The notes under the pieces were generated by a model, which had not been told where the DNA came from, did no database searches, and saw only the letters and a list, made by a program, of their open reading frames with translations. The translations under genes were made by a program, and so were the position numbers. Source: a virus. From it: DNA of 64,000 nt. Below, piece by piece: positions 9,166 to 64,000 of the stretch (the stretch's first letter is position 1; the number at the start of each line of letters is the position of its first letter). The stretch covers positions 54,057-118,056 of the IMG/VR virus record IMGVR_UViG_3300034374_012521. One strand, given 5' to 3'.

Positions 9166-10452
9166 TTATTGAGCAACCGCCTCCTTAGAATTCATCACCT
9201 CAGCTTTCTTTGCAGCTGCTTGTCTATAATGGTCTAAGTTTTTAAGCATCCTTTCTTTCTCGTTAGGAGGCAAATGATTGAAGAAATCCATACGAACTAC
9301 AGCATCCATCTTTTCGAAGGCCAATTCAGGATTACCTGTATGGAAAGCCGCTAGGGCATACTCATCTAAAAGTCTCCATTGCCAAACCTCAGGCTCAACA
9401 AAAAGAATATCTGAGGTCCCAGGGTTTTTTACAGCCATATTTCCATAGGTAAATGAAAGTACCCACCTACCTCTTTCCCTTAGCTTTCTCATGCAATGGA
9501 AAACTGCTTCAAGTCTTTCCGGTCTATATTCCCAAGCTCTAGAGTAAGCTTGGATTACCTCATCTGGATGTCTTCCTAATTGTTCCTTGATTTTACCAAT
9601 CATATACATTGAGTAGTATACTTCTTCCTCCCATCCACCAGCTTCGATTCTTCTCTCATAAGCTTCGATAGCTTTGACCTTTTGGTTAGAATCTCTATAG
9701 CTTTGGGCAAGATAGAACATATACCGTGTGTTTGCAGGCTCATCTTCTAATGCTTTCTCTAGAATTTCTGCATCTTTAGCATATTTCTCCTCAAGTGTAT
9801 TTGCTCTCTTTAGTGGACTAATGTCAGCATTAACGAAACATTTATCTGCAGGTATTTGGTACTGGACTAGAGGTTCCTTTCCAGGTAAATCTAAATACTC
9901 GTGTAGTACACCTTTGTATACCCAATCCTGATCGGACCTGACTATTTGTGCCCTATGGTACTGGAGGTTATTTAGCTTATATAGTATTTGGAAACAATCA
10001 ACTTTTTCTTTTGGCAAATTGCTAAATGGATTAACGCTAGGATTTGCTACCTGGAATGTATCATCAGCATCAATAATCCACCTGTAATCACATTTTCCTT
10101 TTGCAAGCTCAAGACTTTCTGTACGATTGACCTCAAAGTTTACCCATGGTCTTTCGTGGACTTCCCCATCGATACCAAGGTCTTTCATGGTAGAATTAAT
10201 TTCTTCGATAGTATTATCAGAAGAACCTGTATCAACTATAACGTAGTATGAAATGTAAGGAGCAACCTGTGTAAGACATCTTCTAATTGTATCCCCTTCA
10301 TCCTTTACAATCATAACAAGACAGAGAGATATATCCTGCTTAGTTAAATCTAGAGACATCTGTGCAGCATCTTGACTGCTTAGGGTATTGATTTTTTGTG
10401 GTTTTTTAGAAGAAGTGTTTTTAACCTTTTTCTTTTTGCTCTTTGAAGCCAT
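9166..10452 (-). CDS. Family 2 glycosyltransferase fused to TPR-like repeats
   Basis: 428 residues. A Lys-rich N-terminal tail (1-35) precedes a GT-A fold of the SunT-like GT2 type: CysLeuValMetIleValLysAspGluGly at about 42-51, IleValAspThrGlySerSerAspAsnThr near 72-81, and a DxD-type IleAspAlaAspAspThr near 130. The C-terminal half consists of helical repeats with TPR spacing (NTRYMFYLAQSYRD and others). Such enzymes transfer a sugar from a nucleotide-sugar to a protein or glycan acceptor. Target unknown; modification of a virion or host surface protein is inference. A TATAAATA element lies 23 nt upstream, suggesting late expression. Confidence 0.85.
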   Translation of the reverse strand: MASKSKKKKVKNTSSKKPQKINTLSSQDAAQMSLDLTKQDISLCLVMIVKDEGDTIRRCLTQVAPYISYYVIVDTGSSDNTIEEINSTMKDLGIDGEVHERPWVNFEVNRTESLELAKGKCDYRWIIDADDTFQVANPSVNPFSNLPKEKVDCFQILYKLNNLQYHRAQIVRSDQDWVYKGVLHEYLDLPGKEPLVQYQIPADKCFVNADISPLKRANTLEEKYAKDAEILEKALEDEPANTRYMFYLAQSYRDSNQKVKAIEAYERRIEAGGWEEEVYYSMYMIGKIKEQLGRHPDEVIQAYSRAWEYRPERLEAVFHCMRKLRERGRWVLSFTYGNMAVKNPGTSDILFVEPEVWQWRLLDEYALAAFHTGNPELAFEKMDAVVRMDFFNHLPPNEKERMLKNLDHYRQAAAKKAEVMNSKEAVAQ

Positions 10453-23188: not shown

Positions 23189-23197
23189 TTATATATC
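23189..23197 (-). promoter_or_regulatory. Late-promoter-like GATATATAA element (with adjacent TATAAATA)
   Basis: A perfect copy 18 nt before the GTG at 23170, overlapping the TGA stop of the upstream gene. A separate exact TATAAATA lies at 23176-23183, inside the presumptive leader. Confidence 0.5.
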
Positions 23198-25109
23198 ATC
23201 CCCTGACGCTTGTAATAAGGTCGTTGTAAAGATTAGATACCTCTTTTGGAACCATCTTTTTGAACTTAGAAAAGTCTTGGTCCTTCATAGCTTGTCTAAC
23301 CTCAGTACCGCTCGTTACCCTTGGTGTTTCTACAATACCAAGGTCATCACTTATTTTGTCCTTAATATCAGACATCTTAACATAGTCTATCTGCTTAGTG
23401 TAGTCATCAATTCGGTCGGGGCCTGCACCAATTAACTTGGGATCATATCCCATGTCTACTAGTCTTGCAATAGCAGACCCAAGAAGACCTCTTGTAGCAA
23501 GGACATATCCTTCAATCTCCTCGTTATTAGCAACTATTGCATCCATATATCTTTTGATTGCCTCCTCATCAAATGGGGATTTTCCAGACTTGTTGTGTCC
23601 AGGATAAACCACAACAACAAAAGATGGGAGATCGTTTTTCTCCATGAGATCCTTCGCCATCTTAAGATGTCCCTGGTGGAAAGGCTGGAATCTACCCATT
23701 ATGACATTAACTGGTTTTCTTTCCTCCGTATCTTTCTCCTTGAGCATTTCTACCTCAGCCGGGATCTCCTCGTTATCAATGGTTTCTAACTTGCTGATAA
23801 ATTCCTGATATGAGAAAAAAGGGTCTTCGCTGGAATCCGTATCGTCCTCTTCTTGCAGATATTCTACTGAAGGTAGGTTTTCCTTTCTAAATTCTCCAAA
23901 GCTAATAAATTTAGATTCGTTTACTTTCTTCTCTGGTTTTTTGATGTAGTCCTTAATATCTTTAATCAAAATATTCATCTGATCCTTCATACCAGAAGTT
24001 ATGATACCACCTGCTCTAGTTTTTATCTTCCTAAAGGAATTAAGAATGAGTTTAAATAAAGACTCAAATGAGTCATCCTTCTCAACATATTTAAGAACTC
24101 TTCTGTCTTTAATCTTTTCCTTATTCAGTCTGAATTCATCCCTCTTTAAGTAATCAGGCTCCTCAAAATCAGTACCCTTATACTTCTCCTCATATTCATC
24201 CAGGAATTTAACAAATACGTCTCCCATAAAGGAAATGTATCTCTCGTCTTCAGACTCACCTTCAACTTCAAATTCAGAAAGATCTTTTTCCAAAATGAAA
24301 TTCATCACATCAAGCAATGTGATTCCAAGAAAATCCGAAGGCTTTTTACTCTTTTTGTCAGCAAACTTTTGCTTAGCTATTTCAGTGAATATAGGATCCA
24401 CCATTTTGGCTAATACAGTATCACTATCTCCATCGAGCTCTCCAAATCTAAAAACTATACCCTCGACATCCTTATCTAGGTCGTCGTTAAGAGCAGTTTT
24501 AGTTAAATCCGGGTTTAGGGTCTTAATAACAAACCTAACAAAAGATTGTGTTTTGAACCTTTCAACAAGATCTTTGAACGGCGTGTTCAAAAAATCCATA
24601 AGCTCAGATTTCTGATCTTCGTCCAACACCCCCTGGAAAACGATTGGTGGTCTTTCAACTCCAATCAGATCTGCCCAATTATCCAATTCTTCCTTATCCT
24701 GGATAGTACTTTCTATCTTACCGCCAGTACCCATTTTATGGATATAAGAGAGAATTAGATTATTCTTTGGTAATCTATCATACGAGATCTCTACAGGTTT
24801 GGTGTTTGAAAAATACTCAAGACCAAATCTCCATCCCCTAGGTATTTTTTCCAATATGTTTGGTGGGAGTGATTCAATATACTGGATTGGCTTCTCATAA
24901 TACTTCATGAGTGTTCTGTCCACAAGAGTTATAGGATTTCTTTGATCCCTCCTATAAAACCTAAAATTACCAGATTCTTTATCTCTCTCAAAAGAGAAAG
25001 CTGATCCGTCCATCTTTTCATTGATCGTTACGTAACGATTAAAAAGCTGGTTGACAAAATCAGATCCCTTCTTATTATAAATGTCATATAAGTGATTTAT
25101 TCCCGCCAT
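23196..25109 (-). CDS. Nucleic-acid-ligase-like / nucleotidylyltransferase (NMNAT-like) fusion
   Basis: 637 residues. The N-terminal domain carries LysMetAspGly at 32-35 in the GluLysMetAspGlySer context, resembling motif I of the ATP-dependent DNA/RNA ligase superfamily, with TyrArgArgAspGlnArg and ArgPheGlyLeuGluTyrPhe segments as motif III-like. The C-terminal domain (about 467-637) is a cytidylyltransferase-like fold: GlyArgPheGlnProPheHisGlnGlyHis (HxGH at 478-481) and ThrSerGlyThrGluValArg near 599-605 (the ISSTxxR position). Between them lie two peptides resembling the head-targeting sequence (about 400-420 and 431-442, the latter SerTyrGlnGluPheIleSer). It may seal, cap or adenylylate RNA or NMN. 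The chemistry is not decidable by eye. Confidence 0.8.
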   Translation of the reverse strand: MAGINHLYDIYNKKGSDFVNQLFNRYVTINEKMDGSAFSFERDKESGNFRFYRRDQRNPITLVDRTLMKYYEKPIQYIESLPPNILEKIPRGWRFGLEYFSNTKPVEISYDRLPKNNLILSYIHKMGTGGKIESTIQDKEELDNWADLIGVERPPIVFQGVLDEDQKSELMDFLNTPFKDLVERFKTQSFVRFVIKTLNPDLTKTALNDDLDKDVEGIVFRFGELDGDSDTVLAKMVDPIFTEIAKQKFADKKSKKPSDFLGITLLDVMNFILEKDLSEFEVEGESEDERYISFMGDVFVKFLDEYEEKYKGTDFEEPDYLKRDEFRLNKEKIKDRRVLKYVEKDDSFESLFKLILNSFRKIKTRAGGIITSGMKDQMNILIKDIKDYIKKPEKKVNESKFISFGEFRKENLPSVEYLQEEDDTDSSEDPFFSYQEFISKLETIDNEEIPAEVEMLKEKDTEERKPVNVIMGRFQPFHQGHLKMAKDLMEKNDLPSFVVVVYPGHNKSGKSPFDEEAIKRYMDAIVANNEEIEGYVLATRGLLGSAIARLVDMGYDPKLIGAGPDRIDDYTKQIDYVKMSDIKDKISDDLGIVETPRVTSGTEVRQAMKDQDFSKFKKMVPKEVSNLYNDLITSVRG

Positions 25110-30334: not shown

Positions 30335-31288
30335 TTAGAGATCTGCGTATAGGTCGTCTAGGGACGATGAAGTTTCTGGTGCTGAAGGTTGGCTGATGCC
30401 CTTATCCTCTTTTGCAGGTTCGGATCCTACCTTTGTTGAAGAAGCTTCATTATAGAAATCGTTCGTTGAACTAGAAGATGAAGTTGTAGTAGAAGATTGG
30501 TTTACACCTCCTAAAACCTCATTAACTAATCTTCCGTCAGGAACTGAATTCTTAATAACATTCATCACACGGTCGGTAGTATTTTGATCCCAATCCTTGT
30601 ATTCAAATTGTGTGAGGTTATCAGGACCTGTTTTAAGGTATTCCATGATTGCATTCATGTCATCCTGATTCTTAGCCATCTTCTTGCCGTTGATCTCGAT
30701 AGCGGTTCTATCACCAACGAATGAGCAAAGATCGTAGTTGTTCCACTCACCAACTTTTCTTGTATGTACTGAGAAAAGTTTACCTTCAAAAAGATCGTAA
30801 GGGTTGCAAGAATCTCCATATTCAGGCTTGAGCTGTGCTTCGAGCATATCGTTTAGCTTACGTCCAAATTTGAAGATCATAATTTTTCCCTCAAGCTCAG
30901 GATTGTGTTTATCCTGTACGATTTGAATGAGTGAGTAGTAGTCTTCCTTTCTAGAAAAACTTCTTGATAATTCTTGGTCTGCTGCTGAATGTGAATTTTT
31001 CAGCTTCCAGAACATGTCCTTAAGTACTGATTTTTTTCCTACCGTTGACGGACAGTCAACTGGAAATCCATCACCTGTTGTTGGATCGTTTAGATAAACG
31101 TAGTACTTGTGGATTTTTGATTTCGTCGGATCGACGTGGTTAGGAAGAAAACGGATCAGCGATTTGTAAACTCCATCCTTTCCGTTTTCCGGATATGGTT
31201 TGTAAAATTCTGTTCCTTCTGAATTCTCCTTTTTTGCTTTCGTTACGAATGCTTCCGCATCCAAATTGAAAATGTCTAAATTACTCAT
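30335..31288 (-). CDS. 32: Single-stranded DNA-binding protein, T4 gp32-like
   Basis: 317 residues. The core begins after an N-terminal helix (NLDIFNLDAEAFVTKAKKE) that plays the cooperative-binding role. Family segments visible include TyrLysSerLeuIleArgPheLeuPro, LysTyrTyrValTyrLeuAsnAspPro, AspMetPheTrpLysLeuLysAsnSer, and TyrSerLeuIleGlnIleValGlnAspLysHisAsnPro. The Ser/Thr- and acid-rich C-terminal tail (from about 250) recruits other replication proteins. The T4 zinc-binding residues (His plus three Cys after the first OB strand) are not all present: one His and one Cys remain near residues 61-80. It coats ssDNA during replication and recombination. Confidence 0.92.
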   Translation of the reverse strand: MSNLDIFNLDAEAFVTKAKKENSEGTEFYKPYPENGKDGVYKSLIRFLPNHVDPTKSKIHKYYVYLNDPTTGDGFPVDCPSTVGKKSVLKDMFWKLKNSHSAADQELSRSFSRKEDYYSLIQIVQDKHNPELEGKIMIFKFGRKLNDMLEAQLKPEYGDSCNPYDLFEGKLFSVHTRKVGEWNNYDLCSFVGDRTAIEINGKKMAKNQDDMNAIMEYLKTGPDNLTQFEYKDWDQNTTDRVMNVIKNSVPDGRLVNEVLGGVNQSSTTTSSSSSTNDFYNEASSTKVGSEPAKEDKGISQPSAPETSSSLDDLYADL

Positions 31289-31329: not shown

Positions 31330-32112
31330 CTAAGTGTCCCAAATGTTTCCCCTAGACATTATATATCCAAAACTTTTTTCATCTATTTCGTTTTCTGATA
31401 CTTCGGTCTCCCAAACATTCTTACCTCGGAGTGAAACTTTGACAAACGGCCTAGATAAACCAAATTCAGAACTTTCTATGTGATATCTTAGTAAAGTTTC
31501 AGGGTGGAAGTAAATATCGGATAGAATATACTCCTCCAGATAGTCGAACATTTTGCAGTAATGCTCCATTGCATCTCTACCTCCCCAAGCCAATATATCA
31601 TTTACCCCACCTTTCCAATCAAACCCAGGAGGAACATTGATCTTATCCAAGTCCTGTCCTAAATTCAATTCATTGTGAATCTTAATATCCATTCTTCCCT
31701 TGATGACGCAATCGTACTTTTGACCTACCTGGATTTCATATTCTTCCATCAAGGAGTAAGCTTGTCTAATTTTATACCACATCAAAAAAACAGACACTGG
31801 ATTGATCTCACCAGTCTGTGGACCAAACCCCTCATAAGACCAAGCCCTGTCAATAAACTTTCTAATCGCATCAGAACCAAAATCGTCGGTCTTCAAGTGC
31901 TTGGGTGAATACATCTTTATAAGATCGTCAATGGTTAAGGAGTCCACTAGATCTTTAGTTTCAGCATGTAGAGATTGGTTGATTTCACCCGAGGGATTCC
32001 AAGTTGATATGAAAACATCAGTATCATACTTATCTAAAATTTCTGACTTGATAAACGGGAAGGAATCCTGAGCTTCCCTTATTTGACCAGGAAGTAGCAA
32101 GGCAACCCTCAT
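31330..32112 (-). CDS. Glycosyltransferase-like protein (GQxR / DVFxxTW family)
   Basis: 260 residues. It begins MetArgValAlaLeuLeuLeuProGlyGlnIleArg and has AspThrAspValPheIleSerThrTrp near residue 30. This combination is found in glycosyltransferase-like proteins of polysaccharide loci and large viruses. A Rossmann-like alpha/beta arrangement is plausible; LysTyrAspCysValIleLysGlyArgMetAspIle resembles the nucleotide/metal-binding strand. No verified catalytic residue can be named. It overlaps the GDPD-like gene by 4 nt and is last in the RuBisCO-like operon, so I infer a role in attaching or finishing the sugar made there. Confidence 0.5.
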   Translation of the reverse strand: MRVALLLPGQIREAQDSFPFIKSEILDKYDTDVFISTWNPSGEINQSLHAETKDLVDSLTIDDLIKMYSPKHLKTDDFGSDAIRKFIDRAWSYEGFGPQTGEINPVSVFLMWYKIRQAYSLMEEYEIQVGQKYDCVIKGRMDIKIHNELNLGQDLDKINVPPGFDWKGGVNDILAWGGRDAMEHYCKMFDYLEEYILSDIYFHPETLLRYHIESSEFGLSRPFVKVSLRGKNVWETEVSENEIDEKSFGYIMSRGNIWDT

Positions 32113-32543
32113 GAATAATTCACAATATAATCAGAACATACACCACAACAACTATCAACTTTCTCCTCGTACATCTCAGGTAAAACCGCAATGCTTTTGC
32201 TAATTGGTTGCATCCCAGGAAAAGCCCAAATGAAAGATTTAGAGGTAAGGGTTACCTTGTCGTTTTCGTGCCAAAAAACATTGAGATCTCCATATTCCTT
32301 CAGATAAACCATAGCTGATATGTTTTTACAATGTATCCATAACTTATCCCCTCTTTCTAAAAGCCAAGCAAGATGTATTTTGGTTTCTGGAGAATCGTGT
32401 CCCAAATAGATTGATGCTCCGGAGATCCAAACGTCGATCTCCACATCATACCCCAGATCAAGAGCTTCCTGTATATAGTCAATCGTATTTTCTCTATCCG
32501 GATTTGGACCTTTTAAATTACCTCTATGTGATATTAGCTTCAT
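32109..32543 (-). CDS. Short GDPD-like phosphodiesterase
   Basis: 144 residues. The signature of glycerophosphodiester phosphodiesterases is present: HisArgGlyAsn at 6-9, ArgGluAsnThr at 17-20, ValGluIleAspVal at 34-38, and LeuGlyHisAsp at 47-50. These give the catalytic His, the Glu-x-Asp metal pair and the second His-Asp. At about 60% of the usual 240-residue length it is probably a minimal barrel. It might cleave a phosphodiester on a glycan, lipid or nucleotide-sugar. It starts 2 nt after the RuBisCO-like gene and overlaps the glycosyltransferase-like gene by 4 nt. Confidence 0.68.
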   Translation of the reverse strand: MKLISHRGNLKGPNPDRENTIDYIQEALDLGYDVEIDVWISGASIYLGHDSPETKIHLAWLLERGDKLWIHCKNISAMVYLKEYGDLNVFWHENDKVTLTSKSFIWAFPGMQPISKSIAVLPEMYEEKVDSCCGVCSDYIVNYS

Positions 32544-32544
32544 A

Positions 32545-33780
32545 TCAGAATATTCGATAGTCTAGATCTTCCGAGAAACATTTATTACCCCACTTTTCTA
32601 TTGCTGCTTTATATTCAGGCTCATCATGATCTCCATCGATAGACTGTCTCATTGCCAAGGCACCAGCTCTAGTTCCCTGTGGGTGTCCATGCATAGCACC
32701 GCCAACGTTTGCCATCCAATCGAAGCTTCCTATTGTTGTATTAATATACTCAACAAGCCCTGGATGCATACCACAGCTTAAAGCAGGAACAATGTTATAA
32801 TTCCAAAGGGTTTGTAAGGTATCTTTTATTTCCTGCTCATCTTGGCTCATATAACCGCCGATCATTCCTGCATGGATCGAATCGACTCCAGACCACCCAG
32901 CGATCTTGCACAAAACCGGCCAGTAAATGTGGTTTGGCGCCCTACGGTCAGTAAAGAATTTATCTCCGCTCTTTTGGAAATGTATCCAGAGATTTGGATT
33001 TTGCTTTCTAATAGCACGATAAATTCCCAGGCCGCTCCACACGTTTATGTGTATTCCGTTCCCACCGTTATCTGCTACAAATTTTGCCCTTTCTAAGGCA
33101 TATGGACTATCACCATTTATGCAAAAGCAATAAATTACGTCGGGCGCATTCTCTTTTAACCAAGATGAAATCAAAGGTACTCTTTCTTCAAGAGGGCAGT
33201 GGGAAGGGTTAGCAAGTAATTCATCCTCTTTGATGAAATTCACACCACCATAAACCATTTCCTTCACAGCTTCGAGAAGAACAGAGGGAGACATACCAAC
33301 CTTAGGTTTAACTATTCCACCTAAGAAAGGTCTTTGTTTTATACCATTAAATTTCCTCCATCCATCAATACCATAGGCCGGATTTAAAGAAAATGATCTC
33401 TCAGCATCCTCAGGCAAAGAAATGTCCAAGACATGACATTGTCTTACTTCCTCTATGTCAACCTGACCACCAGCTATATGACAAAGTATTTGAGAGATCC
33501 CATCTTCTTCCAAATTAAGATTTGCTAGAGGAAAAGCTATCTCGATCTCGCCCTCTTTTAGCTGGGTAAGATCTTCTTCGTTTGCAAGAATAAAGCAACT
33601 GTGATTTTCAAACATCTCATCGGTTTCCCACTCGCTCCTATTATTCGGGTTACCTATACTTTGACCTATAGCCAAATTCCAGGAAGCTTCCCTCAAAGAA
33701 GTTTTAGCTTCCAAAAAGTATTTGACTATAAAATACTGGGATGTATCAAAATCCGCCTTATTTTTAAAAATGCTTATCAT
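32545..33780 (-). CDS. RuBisCO-like protein (form IV type)
   Basis: 411 residues, full RuBisCO large-subunit fold by motif: the N-terminal domain (IleGlyGlnSerIleGlyAsn at 38-44) and the TIM barrel. By-eye alignment to spinach numbering keeps Lys175/177 (LysProLys, 158-160), Lys201/Asp203/Glu204 (LysGluAspGlu, 184-187), His294 (His267), His327 (His303), Ser379/Gly381 (Ser335, Gly337) and the GlyGly phosphate loop (360-361). It loses Glu60 (Gly39), Trp66 (Pro45), Asn123 (Gly), Thr173 (Ile156), Arg295 (Phe268) and loop-6 Lys334 (Tyr310). Loss of Lys334 argues against carboxylation. Enolase or isomerase chemistry on a sugar phosphate, as in other form IV proteins, is inferred. It overlaps the cupin gene by 4 nt. 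Confidence 0.88.
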   Translation of the reverse strand: MISIFKNKADFDTSQYFIVKYFLEAKTSLREASWNLAIGQSIGNPNNRSEWETDEMFENHSCFILANEEDLTQLKEGEIEIAFPLANLNLEEDGISQILCHIAGGQVDIEEVRQCHVLDISLPEDAERSFSLNPAYGIDGWRKFNGIKQRPFLGGIVKPKVGMSPSVLLEAVKEMVYGGVNFIKEDELLANPSHCPLEERVPLISSWLKENAPDVIYCFCINGDSPYALERAKFVADNGGNGIHINVWSGLGIYRAIRKQNPNLWIHFQKSGDKFFTDRRAPNHIYWPVLCKIAGWSGVDSIHAGMIGGYMSQDEQEIKDTLQTLWNYNIVPALSCGMHPGLVEYINTTIGSFDWMANVGGAMHGHPQGTRAGALAMRQSIDGDHDEPEYKAAIEKWGNKCFSEDLDYRIF

Positions 33781-34100
33781 TCAATTACAAATTTATCACC
33801 AGGAACCGAGGGGGTCTTAACTATAAAAACTTCACAGTCTTCCAAAAATACGGGGTCAGCAATTTCATCTTTCCTTAGAATAAACACATCCCCCGAATTT
33901 AATTCCCGTCCTTGTATAATCATTTTACCCGATCTGAGGAAGTTTATTTCATCCGCTTCCTTATGGTAATGTTTTGGCCACTCTTCGCCCTTGAAGTGCT
34001 TTTTATAACAAATCTCAAAATCACTAGTTTGGTAAGCTACTGGGGAGAAATCTCCAGCATACCAACCTCCCTTCATATCTTCAATTCTATAAACTTCCAT
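33777..34100 (-). CDS. Cupin-fold protein
   Basis: 107 residues, a single cupin barrel. TrpProLysHisTyrHisLysGluAlaAspGlu gives the metal-binding His44, His46 and Glu51 of cupin motif 1, with Gly at the turn (ArgSerGlyLysMet). Motif 2 (GlyAspValPheIleLeu) lacks a clear His ligand. Candidate roles are sugar-phosphate isomerase/epimerase or a regulatory ligand-binding cupin. It lies 3 nt after the nucleotidyltransferase gene and overlaps the RuBisCO-like gene by 4 nt (ATGA junction). Confidence 0.75.
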   Translation of the reverse strand: MEVYRIEDMKGGWYAGDFSPVAYQTSDFEICYKKHFKGEEWPKHYHKEADEINFLRSGKMIIQGRELNSGDVFILRKDEIADPVFLEDCEVFIVKTPSVPGDKFVIE

Positions 34101-34103
34101 AAA

Positions 34104-34835
34104 CTAAACCAACTTTAAAAATTTATCCAGGTCCTCTGGGGTACCTATCGGAAAGTGAAGGTTATAGAAGAAGGGCAATATTTTCTTTCCACTTTTTATC
34201 ATGTAATTGTAGGTAGGTGCAACATAGAACTCATTATTGTACCGATCGTTTGCTGCTATCATTTGTTCCGCACTTTCCACAAAGTATTTACCATGCTTCC
34301 AAAAATGTAACCCGTTAGTAGCAATGTTGGAAATCACAATTTTTTCCTTCACATCACAGACCTCTCCGTTTGGATCTAACTTAACATAGCTGTTCTTTTT
34401 AGAAGAGGAAAGAAAACATCCCAACAATCCATCACACCCCGTAGTTCTTGCAAAATCTAAAATGAAGTCCAGATTGAAATCCAGAATAATCTGATCACAG
34501 TTAACAACAATGAGAGGCAGATCGTTATTGATCGACTGACTTGCAAAGAGAACCGTTGAAGCTGGTCCTTGTGTTAATGTTGGGGTTGAGAAAATCTCAT
34601 ACGATATTCCCATGTCTGATATATGGGAGTCAAATTCTGTAGGAGAAATATATTCCTCGTTTATCACAAATACAAAGTGTGCATCTTGATGATTTAGGTT
34701 TTTAATCACTGACCTAATCATCGTTTCTCCGCTGACGTCTATAAATGGTTTTATCTGTAGGTATCCAGCGTCGCTGAATCTCCTTCCAGCACCTCCGAGA
34801 GGAATAAGAATGTTAACCTTCTTTGATTGAGTCAT
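34104..34835 (-). CDS. Sugar-phosphate nucleotidyltransferase
   Basis: 243 residues. The N-terminal Rossmann-like fold has LeuGlyGlyAlaGlyArgArgPhe (13-20) with Lys29-Pro, the NTP-binding signature of NTP_transferase enzymes. ValAsnCysAspGlnIle supplies the metal Asp114, and GlyThrProGluAspLeuAspLys near the end is the family's C-terminal motif. It would join an NTP to a sugar-1-phosphate or related phosphate to give an NDP-activated donor. Its 5' end overlaps the RuvC-like gene by 23 nt (34813-34835). It heads the cassette containing cupin, RuBisCO-like, GDPD-like and glycosyltransferase-like genes. Confidence 0.82.
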   Translation of the reverse strand: MTQSKKVNILIPLGGAGRRFSDAGYLQIKPFIDVSGETMIRSVIKNLNHQDAHFVFVINEEYISPTEFDSHISDMGISYEIFSTPTLTQGPASTVLFASQSINNDLPLIVVNCDQIILDFNLDFILDFARTTGCDGLLGCFLSSSKKNSYVKLDPNGEVCDVKEKIVISNIATNGLHFWKHGKYFVESAEQMIAANDRYNNEFYVAPTYNYMIKSGKKILPFFYNLHFPIGTPEDLDKFLKLV

Positions 34836-35484
34836 ATAAAAATAAACATATCCAGGTCGAATCTATAATATCATCCAATGGCTTGTTTACATTACCGGAG
34901 GGAGTTATCCATTCGTCCTTATTTTCTTCTAAAATACTAGTGAAAGACCCTAAATTAGTTTCTGGAAATTTGTGATCAATAAGAGAATTATAAAGTTCGT
35001 GTTTTTTTGCATTTCCCTTAAAAGCGAACTTCTTGATAGAGGTGGGTGAATAAACATAGAAATTATCGCTACCTGTATGATCAACTATTTTCTTACGGAG
35101 TAGAGCTGTGGCCATAGAGATATCAATCAAAGCATTACCATTAGAGGCAAAACTTAGTCCTTCCATAGCTACAACAATATCATCACCTGCACAGATATTT
35201 TCTACTTCAGACCAAAATTCATCAACGAGCTCCTGAAAATAATCTATCTTTATCCTTTCCCTTTCCGAGTAGTCTTCTGGCATTTTATCCTTTGACATAA
35301 ACATAAGAACATAGTCTTCCGTTTTGTCTTCAGATAAAACATAGTAAGGTTTTTTAGCATTTTTCTTAAGTGATTCTGCAGTCCGGTCACTTCTTGTTAA
35401 AGACCCCCAAGTGAATTGATTATCCCTTAGAATACAGAATGCGGGTGAATTAAGGGAAAAGTCTATCCCAACTAATGTTTTCAA
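34813..35484 (-). CDS. RuvC/RNase H-fold nuclease-like protein
   Basis: 223 residues from a TTG start (no in-frame ATG upstream). GlyIleAspPheSerLeuAsnSerPro (Asp8) is the first strand of the RuvC-type RNase H fold; ValAlaMetGluGlyLeu (Glu108) is the second acidic position; AspAspIleIleAspSerThr near 204-210 supplies the C-terminal Asp residues. The four-carboxylate arrangement suggests a Holliday-junction or branch nuclease. Preceded by a GATATATAA (24 nt) and a terminator. Confidence 0.72.
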   Translation of the reverse strand: MKTLVGIDFSLNSPAFCILRDNQFTWGSLTRSDRTAESLKKNAKKPYYVLSEDKTEDYVLMFMSKDKMPEDYSERERIKIDYFQELVDEFWSEVENICAGDDIVVAMEGLSFASNGNALIDISMATALLRKKIVDHTGSDNFYVYSPTSIKKFAFKGNAKKHELYNSLIDHKFPETNLGSFTSILEENKDEWITPSGNVNKPLDDIIDSTWICLFLYDSIKEG

Positions 35485-35522: not shown

Positions 35523-35588
35523 AAAAAAGCTCCCCGTTTCCAGGGAGCTGAAACTCTTATGAGTCGGTCCTTGGATACTATCCAAGGA
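35523..35588 (-). terminator. Terminator region with two hairpins
   Basis: Stem AGCTCCC/GGGAGCT (35528-35549), followed on the minus strand by a run of six T, is a standard terminator for the gene at 35597-35842. A second perfect 8-bp stem (TCCTTGGA/TCCAAGGA, 35568-35588) lies between it and the stop codon. Confidence 0.8.
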
Positions 35589-62023: not shown

Positions 62024-64000
62024 TTATGGTCCTGTTGCTACTACAAAAGCTACAACTAGAGGTGGTGGTGCTCCAGGGACCGAAGCCGGAACTGCACCAG
62101 TTCCACCCGTTGCTGCAAACGGGAATAAAGATACAGAAGAAGGCCCTGCAGTGGTTAATGTTGCAGTTGCGGTTTCTGGAATAACCCTGTAATAAAAGTT
62201 TGTAATATTTGGATCCGAAGAAGCGTTCAATTGGCTAGCAGCAGATCCCAAGGTCAAATAAGCAGAAGCACCTGTTCCACCACCAGTAGGTCCAAAAGTA
62301 ACACCAACGGGGAATGGGAAAGGTTCGCTACCTGTACTTATTTTAACGTTATCACCAACTTTAGCACTATGTATTTCATATCCCCCGAGCCATCCTGTCT
62401 CAAACTCTAAATCGTCCCAGGAATGAGCATAGGCATTGTCCCAGGATGCTTGAGTAAAGGTTTGCCATTTGAGATTTTTAGTTCCAAAATATTTAAGATT
62501 TTCTACCGGGTTTGATCCAGAAGAAGCATCCCAATCAACATAACTAAATCCTCCAGTTACACCACCAGAAAGTTGGGAATCTATAGATGTTAAAGTTAGT
62601 GACCCAGTTAGAGATACGGTGAGATTGTCACCGTTACCTATATTTCCACTCTCAGTACCAGCTACGATATTAATCGTTACTGGACTTTCTGTTGGATCAA
62701 AAGTTTGTGCAAAGTAATCTGGTTGGGTTTCTACCTTGTTTATCTCCTGTATAATGGAGTTAGCGGTAGACTGTAAATTCGAGCCAGAAGCTGTAGCACC
62801 AATAACACGTCCATTAACAGACACACTAATTGATCCACCTCCGGTTACTTTCTGACTCGGATAAGAACTCGACAAAACATAATACCCAGTTCCACCCACA
62901 ATAGAAGACGGACCTGATGTTGCCCCTACACCAGGCTGGCTACCTAGTATGTAAGGTATTTGGAATGAATATCCAGTTGCTCCGGGAGGTATAGAAATTT
63001 TCCAAGACTTGTTTAAATCATCAATGCTTCCAGTTATAAAAACATCTGAACCATCAGTAAAATTGTGTGGCTGTGTTGTGAATACATTTGCAAAGCTATA
63101 TTGGCTACCTGATATTAAGATAGAGTATACCTTAGAGATGTCTAATATGTTTTGGGAAATCTTAATATCTCCAGAAGCCCCAACTGGAGGTAGATTTTTG
63201 CCGACTTTGAAAATTTGCCCGTCTATAGCATTGTTTCCATAGATTGCAAAGTCAAGAAGCTGCTCTGGAATTTCTTTCTTAACTTCATTCTCAGTTTTAC
63301 CCTCAGCTGGATATTCCCAGATGGAATCATAACTATCCCAATCTCTGATTGTTAGATCCCATGAATATCTTTCATTTTCTCTATATCGAGTCCATCCATC
63401 TATTAATACAGTTCTAGGAGAAACAGTGACCGAGGACTTAACAATTTTTCTATTCTTAAAGTTAAAAGCATCGTATAAGTAACAGGTTACATCATATTCG
63501 CCTGTATAAGGAAGGAAATGTGCTAGTCTATAAAAATCTATAGCATATCCCCTATGCGAGAAATTGTAACCTGTACCAGTCTGGGTTTCAGATTTATTAA
63601 TTACCCATTCAATTTCATTGTAGGCAGAAAAATCTATGGTTCTCCAAGTTAAAGCACTATTTTGACTCTGAAAAGATGGAAGATTCAAAGAATCCCACGA
63701 CATTCCCATTTCATCCCAATCCCAGGTATCAGGAAGTAATTCAAGGATCACCGGCATCCCAACAGGAACACCACATTCAGAGTTATCTAGATTCACATTA
63801 GTATTTATCCTTATATTATTAGGTACCAGAATTGGGGTGCTTGTGGGTGTGGGGGTAGGGGTTGGGGAAACAGTAGGGGTAGGGGTTGGTGTTGGTGAAA
63901 CAGTAGGTGTTGGGGTTGCTGTAGCAGGTACAGGGGTTGGTGTACTCGTAGCAGTAGGTGCTGGAGTAGGTGTTGGGGTTGCTGTAGCAGGTACAGGGGT
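62024..64000 (-). CDS. Tail/surface protein with PKD-like region and Pro/Thr-rich stalk, 5' end beyond window
   Basis: The frame ending at 62024 is open to the window edge (base 64000), so at least 659 residues are encoded and the true start lies outside. The portion upstream of 63796 encodes a Pro/Thr stalk (ProThrProThrProThrValSer units) before LeuValProAsnAsnIleArg and the folded part. The folded part has a PKD-like segment (GluTrpValIleAsnLysSer...TyrThrGlyGluTyrAspValThr) and Ser/Gly-rich beta regions. A GTG at 63794-63796 is in frame but is not the start. No enzyme motif is seen. Confidence 0.75.
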   Translation of the reverse strand, partial: TPVPATATPTPTPAPTATSTPTPVPATATPTPTVSPTPTPTPTVSPTPTPTPTSTPILVPNNIRINTNVNLDNSECGVPVGMPVILELLPDTWDWDEMGMSWDSLNLPSFQSQNSALTWRTIDFSAYNEIEWVINKSETQTGTGYNFSHRGYAIDFYRLAHFLPYTGEYDVTCYLYDAFNFKNRKIVKSSVTVSPRTVLIDGWTRYRENERYSWDLTIRDWDSYDSIWEYPAEGKTENEVKKEIPEQLLDFAIYGNNAIDGQIFKVGKNLPPVGASGDIKISQNILDISKVYSILISGSQYSFANVFTTQPHNFTDGSDVFITGSIDDLNKSWKISIPPGATGYSFQIPYILGSQPGVGATSGPSSIVGGTGYYVLSSSYPSQKVTGGGSISVSVNGRVIGATASGSNLQSTANSIIQEINKVETQPDYFAQTFDPTESPVTINIVAGTESGNIGNGDNLTVSLTGSLTLTSIDSQLSGGVTGGFSYVDWDASSGSNPVENLKYFGTKNLKWQTFTQASWDNAYAHSWDDLEFETGWLGGYEIHSAKVGDNVKISTGSEPFPFPVGVTFGPTGGGTGASAYLTLGSAASQLNASSDPNITNFYYRVIPETATATLTTAGPSSVSLFPFAATGGTGAVPASVPGAPPPLVVAFVVATGP
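63840..64000 (-). repeat. Pro/Thr-coding direct repeat, 63-nt period
   Basis: A 32-base segment at 63906-63937 recurs identically at 63969-64000, giving a 63-nt (21-residue) period. The surrounding bases are shorter imperfect repeats of the GGGGTAGGGGTTGG type. On the minus strand all of it encodes Pro-Thr, Val-Ser-Pro-Thr and Ala-Thr-Ala-Thr units in one open frame. The array continues beyond the window. Confidence 0.85.

What the first reader, a model, noticed from the sequence alone, without database searches (positions are those of the whole stretch)
32545..33780. A RuBisCO-like protein encoded by a phage, with a non-carboxylase active site
The 411-residue product keeps the RuBisCO LysProLys strand, the LysXxxAspGlu carbamate/metal box, both active-site histidines and the phosphate-binding GlyGly loop. 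It lacks loop-6 Lys334 (Tyr310) and Glu60/Thr65/Trp66/Asn123/Thr173/Arg295 equivalents. In known RuBisCO-like (form IV) proteins such losses go with enolisation or isomerisation of sugar phosphates (for example DK-MTP-1-P enolase). A RuBisCO homologue among T4-like core genes is unexpected and may be a new RLP clade.
Basis: partly seen in the sequence, partly recalled or inferred. Interest (0 to 1): 0.92.

Follow-up and report, generated by a model that had tools for sequence, protein, structure and literature searches.

The report
Phage RuBisCO-like protein in sugar-nucleotide cassette
A tailed phage carries a relative of the CO2-fixing enzyme RuBisCO that has lost the residues needed to fix CO2 and sits in a compact gene set that looks built to make an unusual activated sugar, so the "RuBisCO genes" reported in phages should not be read as carbon fixation without checking these residues.

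Summary
The gene is real, on the minus strand (33780-32545): 411 residues, full RuBisCO fold (model pLDDT 91; best PDB match form III RuBisCO, TM 0.84). It is not a carboxylase: Glu60, Thr65, Trp66, Asn123, His294, Arg295 and Lys334 are replaced, while Lys175, Lys177, carbamate Lys201, Asp203, Glu204, His327 and the phosphate loops stay. At least 355 IMG/VR contigs encode relatives; INPHARED, PHROGs and BFVD show none. Same-tool scans of IMG/VR with form I, II and III queries found none. Viral and sparse bacterial/archaeal homologues form one clade (100/100 support) apart from the reference groups included, with its own invariant active site. The RLP lies in a tightly coupled operon: nucleotidyltransferase, cupin, RLP, GDPD-like protein, GT-A glycosyltransferase. 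The nucleotidyltransferase is within three genes in 88 of 97 viral and 18 of 23 cellular loci; Legionella adds LicD. Most likely it enolises or isomerises a phosphorylated sugar that is then nucleotide-activated for glycan decoration. Substrate unknown. Published viral "rbcL" claims need re-checking; their sequences were not compared here.

The parts
32545..33780 (-). RuBisCO-like protein (411 aa) of a new clade; inferred sugar-phosphate enolase/isomerase
   Evidence: PF00016 4e-33; AF2 pLDDT 91.3, Foldseek to form III TM 0.84; residue table; clade 100/100
33777..34100 (-). Small cupin (107 aa) with conserved HxH...E metal site (H44, H46, E51)
   Evidence: phrog_24762 8.9e-30; weak Pfam cupin; PDB profile hit to a cupin named mannose-6-phosphate isomerase 6.5e-4; conservation over 94 members; within 3 genes of RLP in 86/97 viral loci
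34104..34835 (-). Nucleotidyltransferase of the sugar-1-phosphate nucleotidyltransferase superfamily (GxGxRF..KP, D114)
   Evidence: PF00483 2.6e-10; PDB profile 4evw 3.6e-33, then sugar-1-P nucleotidyltransferases; near RLP in 88/97 viral and 18/23 cellular loci
32109..32543 (-). Short GDPD-like protein (144 aa) keeping the HR...ExD...GHD catalytic motifs
   Evidence: phrog_34507 6e-31; PDB profile hit to glycerophosphodiester phosphodiesterase 5.8e-4; H6 R7 E35 D37 H49 conserved over 88 members; Pfam GDPD protein at this place in L096
31330..32112 (-). GT-A-like glycosyltransferase (260 aa)
   Evidence: AF2 pLDDT 85.9; top Foldseek hits all GT-A glycosyltransferases, TM 0.41-0.47
34813..35484 (-). 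RuvC-like phage gene just upstream, overlapping the nucleotidyltransferase start; marks the insertion site
   Evidence: phrog_159 3.9e-14; same site RuvC-like/cassette/gp32 in 16 of 97 viral loci
30335..31288 (-). gp32 single-stranded DNA-binding protein just downstream (T4-like core)
   Evidence: PF08804 1.8e-12, phrog_224 2e-33
35528..35549 (-). Terminator-like hairpin with T-run upstream of the operon
   Evidence: consensus match only; number of such sites not above shuffles

Best explanation
The protein is a RuBisCO-like enzyme that does not fix CO2. It uses the kept half of the RuBisCO active site (K184, probably carbamylated, with D186 and E187 holding Mg2+; K158 and K160 as acid/base; phosphate gripped by S335-C-G337 and G360-G361, with H303 and K270 at the other end) to pull a proton off a phosphorylated keto-sugar and return it elsewhere, i.e. 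an enolisation, isomerisation or epimerisation. Its product, perhaps after a further step by the metal cupin, is joined to a nucleotide by the adjacent nucleotidyltransferase, and the activated sugar or polyol-phosphate is placed by the neighbouring GT-A glycosyltransferase (in Legionella perhaps LicD) on a glycan of the host surface or of the virion. Shown: fold, residue pattern, clade, operon and its conservation. Inferred: catalysis, pathway order, product and target. Substrate and nucleotide are unknown.
For: Catalytic Lys/Asp/Glu invariant in all 46 clade members while the carboxylation-specific residues are replaced, also (nearly) invariantly. Nucleotidyltransferase near the RLP in 88/97 viral and 18/23 cellular loci down to 34% identity (Legionella, Elusimicrobia, Bacteroidota, archaea), so the pairing is not a phage-only accident; cupin 86/97, GDPD-like 69/97. 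Overlapping stop/start codons along the operon. GT-A fold for the last gene. LicD (PF04991, 3e-43), by general knowledge a family of phosphocholine/phospho-alditol transferases, beside RLP-nucleotidyltransferase in Legionella. Other neighbours, read by eye, are epimerases, methyltransferases, UDP-sugar dehydrogenase and glycosyltransferases. Strong purifying selection.
Against: No biochemical data; substrate not identified. Guilt by association cannot tell whether the RLP acts before the nucleotidyltransferase or on another intermediate. A few RLP loci show no nearby nucleotidyltransferase in the DNA held (L092, L096, L097, L099, L101). Cyanophages have nucleotidyltransferase plus cupin in a glycan cluster with no RLP, so the RLP is not essential to the other two. 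The glycosyltransferase is not recognised by sequence models, only by fold.
Confidence: 0.6

Rival explanations
1. A viral RuBisCO that fixes CO2 (rbcL auxiliary metabolic gene), as viral rbcL genes are usually read.
For: Best family score is to type III RuBisCO. Published reports list viral rbcL as carbon fixation (PMC8506154, PMC12607003, PMC13390420) and one claims activity of a soil viral rbcL1 (PMC12615777).
Against: K334, E60, H294, R295, N123, T65 and W66 are replaced throughout the clade. No phosphoribulokinase or small subunit recognised in the operon. Clade separate from forms I-III. The published sequences were not compared here, so they may be other proteins.
Confidence: 0.03
2. 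A methylthio-sugar salvage enzyme like the R. rubrum RLP, which works with a cupin to turn methylthioribulose phosphate into deoxyxylulose phosphate.
For: RLP next to a cupin, as in R. rubrum (own knowledge of Erb et al. and Warlick et al. 2012; not tested by sequence). Enolase residues kept.
Against: The constant partner is a nucleotidyltransferase, then a GDPD-like protein and glycosyltransferase, not the known salvage enzymes. Legionella and Elusimicrobia have the nucleotidyltransferase without cupin. Scores to the two MtnW models are 119 and 89 bits against cut-offs of 409 and 514.
Confidence: 0.1
3. A sugar-phosphate aldolase, lyase or decarboxylase (OiaX-like chemistry) rather than an isomerase, within the same activated-sugar pathway.
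For: The OiaX model is the third-best NCBIfam match (125 bits); the active-site core is compatible with retro-aldol or decarboxylation chemistry.
Against: OiaX-like references keep E60, T65, N123, H294, R295 and K334, which this clade has lost; separate branch.
Confidence: 0.2
4. A non-catalytic scaffold or binding protein with a decayed active site.
For: Several active-site residues lost.
Against: The lost positions hold other residues that are themselves invariant, and K158, K160, K184, D186, E187 never vary; low dN/dS.
Confidence: 0.04

Closest known systems
Archaeal form III RuBisCO (P. horikoshii 2cwx/2d69, T. kodakarensis 3a12)
   Same: Whole-chain fold (TM 0.84), 28% identity, Mg2+/carbamate box, KPK strand, phosphate loops
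   Different: E60, T65, W66, N123, H294, R295, K334 all replaced; separate clade
Form IV RuBisCO-like proteins: MtnW/YkrW (2oej, 2zvi), 3qfw type, OiaX-like, C. tepidum RLP (1ykw), B. fungorum RLP (3nwr)
   Same: RuBisCO fold with part of the carboxylase residues lost; enolisation core kept
   Different: Different set of replacements (here G39/N44/P45/G105/Q269/K270/Y310/C336); best PDB score 171 bits against at least 305 inside the clade; sugar-nucleotide operon instead of sulfur salvage
GOS RuBisCO homologues of unknown group (Yooseph et al. 2007, PMC1821046; perhaps the 'IV-GOS' RLPs)
   Same: Marine RuBisCO homologues not grouping with known forms; could include the same proteins
   Different: Sequences not available here, so not tested; that paper lists K177 as poorly conserved across its whole set, whereas it is invariant here
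Reported viral rbcL genes (PMC8506154, PMC12607003, PMC12615777, PMC13390420)
   Same: RuBisCO homologues on viral contigs; the landfill one grouped with 'RbcL-like' proteins
   Different: Read there as carbon fixation; I found no active-site or operon analysis in the passages read; sequences not compared here
Cyanophage glycan clusters (SynMITS9220M01, Bellamy)
   Same: Related nucleotidyltransferase (about 31%) and cupin (42%) in a sugar-nucleotide cluster
   Different: No RLP

Membership tests
RuBisCO carboxylase (forms I-III) | Catalytic Lys334 (loop 6), Glu60, His294, Asn123, Arg295, Thr65 | tested here: not met
   Y310, G39, Q269, G105, K270, N44; invariant or nearly so in the clade
RuBisCO carboxylase (forms I-III) | Groups with form I, II or III in a tree | tested here: not met
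   Own clade, UFboot/SH-aLRT 100/100
RuBisCO-like protein superfamily (form IV, broad sense) | RuBisCO fold over both domains | tested here: met
   Model pLDDT 91, Foldseek TM 0.84, PF00016 4e-33
RuBisCO-like protein superfamily (form IV, broad sense) | One or more catalytic carboxylation residues lost | tested here: met
   K334, E60, H294, N123, R295 and others lost; K158, K184, D186, E187 kept
RuBisCO-like protein superfamily (form IV, broad sense) | No RuBP carboxylase activity | not testable with these tools
   Needs enzyme assay
DK-MTP-1-P enolase (MtnW) | Reaches NCBIfam equivalog cut-off | tested here: not met
   119 bits vs 409; 89 vs 514
DK-MTP-1-P enolase (MtnW) | Methionine-salvage gene neighbourhood | tested here: not met
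   Neighbours are nucleotidyltransferase, cupin, GDPD-like, glycosyltransferase
3-oxo-isoapionate-4-P decarboxylase (OiaX) | Reaches NCBIfam equivalog cut-off | tested here: not met
   125 bits vs 700
R. rubrum-type RLP (methylthioribulose-1-P isomerase, with cupin) | Sequence grouping with the R. rubrum enzyme | not tested
   No R. rubrum sequence was brought in
IV-GOS RLP group | Groups with the 2007 GOS sequences | not testable with these tools
   Sequences not held

The most novel reading that the evidence does not exclude
A phage-dominated RuBisCO-like clade carries out a sugar-phosphate rearrangement not seen before in this fold, making a nucleotide-activated sugar or polyol not yet described, which phages use to decorate virions or remodel the host surface; and it accounts for most 'viral rbcL' in metagenomes.
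Probability: 0.4. Interest if true: 0.9.

Novelty: new variant of a known kind. Interest (0 to 1): 0.78.

Why it matters
RuBisCO homologues on phage contigs have been reported as genes that boost host CO2 fixation. Here the only RuBisCO-family members I could find in IMG/VR are RLPs lacking carboxylase residues and tied to sugar activation, so that ecological claim becomes testable by a simple residue and neighbour check. It also offers a defined enzyme family (RLP plus nucleotidyltransferase, often with cupin) whose reaction can be assayed, and adds a probable new job to one of the best studied protein folds.

Tried and rejected
INPHARED tblastn (0), PHROGs (0) and BFVD Foldseek (best TM 0.40, only partial barrel matches) hold no relative. 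Host-contaminant reading rejected (uniform GC, phage genes on both sides, same site in 16 contigs). Translation of the plus strand is full of stops; the gene is on minus. Form I, III and II scans of IMG/VR gave no confirmed relative; these are seed-pattern scans (form II with one protein only) on a collection already filtered for viral contigs, so absence is not proof. Rfam, tRNA and tandem-repeat scans of the window gave nothing bearing on it. The nucleotide used (CTP, UTP, GTP, dTTP) could not be read from sequence: profile hits spread over several kinds. LicD homologues were sought near the viral RLPs with the Legionella proteins and not found. One Pfam call failed on a wrong coordinate and two genome searches on a wrong handle. 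Literature: no paper found linking RLPs to nucleotidyltransferases or glycan clusters; subscription papers and preprints are not held.

Full report
What was checked. The finding is an open reading frame of 411 codons at 33780-32545 on the minus strand. It matches RuBisCO large chain (PF00016, E 4e-33) but reaches no curated subfamily cut-off. The alignment-guided AlphaFold2 model is confident (pLDDT 91.3, pTM 0.89) and matches form III RuBisCO over both domains (2d69, TM 0.84, 28% identity). The window lies in a 118,056-base virus record. The genes around it are those of a T4-like phage: topoisomerase II subunits, ribonucleotide reductase, DNA polymerase, helicase, primase and gp32 on one side, RuvC-like and tail-fibre genes on the other. 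GC is even.

Active site. In a joint alignment with reference forms I, II and III and several RLP groups, the enolisation half of the site is kept in every member of the clade: K175, K177, K201, D203, E204, plus S379, G381 and G403 where alignable (nearly all for H327 and G404). The carboxylation half and the neighbour-subunit loop are gone: E60 to Gly, T65 to Asn, W66 to Pro, N123 to Gly, H294 to Gln, R295 to Lys, K334 to Tyr, and G380 to Cys. These replacements are themselves invariant or nearly so in 45-46 proteins from phages, SAR11, Legionella, Azospirillum, Elusimicrobia, Verrucomicrobia, Bacteroidota and DPANN archaea. That is a conserved, different active site, not decay. Roles of the residues are taken from general knowledge of RuBisCO.

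Distribution. In IMG/VR, 355 contigs gave a confirmed relative with the clade profile, against none for form I, form III and one form II query run with the same tool. The annotated phage collection, PHROGs and BFVD hold none. In cells it is rare: 23 loci in the GTDB collection of 84,980 species genomes by seed search, 4 of 143 genomes of the Legionella order, and 2 of 247 of the SAR11 order, both already known to carry it. The careful tree puts all members on one side of a branch with 100/100 support, and profile scores drop from at least 305 bits inside to at most 208 outside. Viral sequences nest among cellular ones, with Legionella/Azospirillum and Elusimicrobia outermost (midpoint root), which suggests that phages took it from cells and spread it; a SAR11/Bacteroidota group and one Patescibacteria contig lie among or beside the viral ones. 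The tree lacks C. tepidum, DeepYkr and R. rubrum RLP sequences; no PDB chain, C. tepidum RLP included, scores more than 171 bits against the clade profile.

The operon. The order RuvC-like, nucleotidyltransferase, cupin, RLP, GDPD-like, GT-A glycosyltransferase, gp32 has overlapping or abutting stop and start codons from the first to the glycosyltransferase. Across 97 viral loci the nucleotidyltransferase is within three genes and on the same strand in 88, the cupin in 86, the GDPD-like protein in 69, the glycosyltransferase in 54, in many different genome settings; 16 share the RuvC-like/gp32 site. In cells the nucleotidyltransferase is there in 18 of 23 and is the partner kept at the greatest distance. 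SAR11 loci often have one on each side of the RLP. Legionella has a divergent LicD gene next door. The partners keep their catalytic motifs: cupin H44, H46, E51; nucleotidyltransferase G15, G17, R19, K29, D114; GDPD-like H6, R7, E35, D37, H49. The glycosyltransferase call rests on a fold match. In L053 and L067 the same site carries an RLP only 52-54% identical while the nucleotidyltransferase and cupin are 68-70% identical, so RLP alleles seem to have been exchanged on their own, as if interchangeable.

How it most likely works. Enolisation chemistry on a phosphorylated sugar, followed by nucleotidyl transfer and transfer to a glycan, fits the kept residues, the constant partner and the neighbours. 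The specific substrate, the nucleotide and the decorated molecule are not known. The main rivals are a different chemistry in the same pathway (aldol or decarboxylation, 0.2) and methylthio-sugar salvage (0.1). Carbon fixation is very unlikely (0.03).

Relation to the literature. Viral rbcL genes have been listed as carbon-fixation AMGs in Great Salt Lake (PMC8506154), landfills (PMC12607003, where the protein grouped with RbcL-like proteins), an estuary (PMC13390420), and mining soils, where activity of one is claimed when expressed with rbcS and the AMGs studied are 25-36% identical to known genes (PMC12615777). I could not compare those sequences, so I do not say they are this clade; I say the check is easy and needed. 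The 2007 ocean survey already saw RuBisCO homologue groups of unknown kind (PMC1821046), which may include this clade. So RuBisCO homologues on phages are not new as a sighting; the defined clade, its distinctive site and its operon were not found in the library searched.

Noticed in passing
23196-25109 (-): 637-aa protein with a C-terminal cytidyltransferase domain (phrog_3041, phrog_395); could matter if the cassette's product is CDP-activated.
   Followed up: no
9166-10452 (-): Second phage glycosyltransferase (phrog_13126, beta-1,4-glycosyltransferase) away from the cassette.
   Followed up: no
L102:4919-7930, L103:4666-7895, L104:4791-7963: Legionella maceachernii, nautarum and drozanskii carry RLP plus nucleotidyltransferase with a divergent LicD gene; 4 of 143 genomes of the order have the RLP.
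   Followed up: partly
L087, L089, L090, L091, L093, L094: SAR11 loci have two different nucleotidyltransferases, one on each side of the RLP, plus the GDPD-like gene.
   Followed up: partly
L008:4304-5677, L035, L060, L062: A HAD_2 phosphatase/phosphomutase-like domain fused to a nucleotidyltransferase in some RLP cassettes.
   Followed up: partly
L020:4113-4946: Transaldolase-like gene with a HAD gene and a second nucleotidyltransferase beside the RLP cassette in about seven viral loci (read by eye).
   Followed up: no
L154, L155: Alphaproteobacterial RuBisCO homologues next to form I in the tree that have lost K175, K201, D203 and E204 altogether: probably another function or none.
   Followed up: no
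63846-64000: Degenerate tandem repeats (period 21-30) at the end of the window.
   Followed up: no
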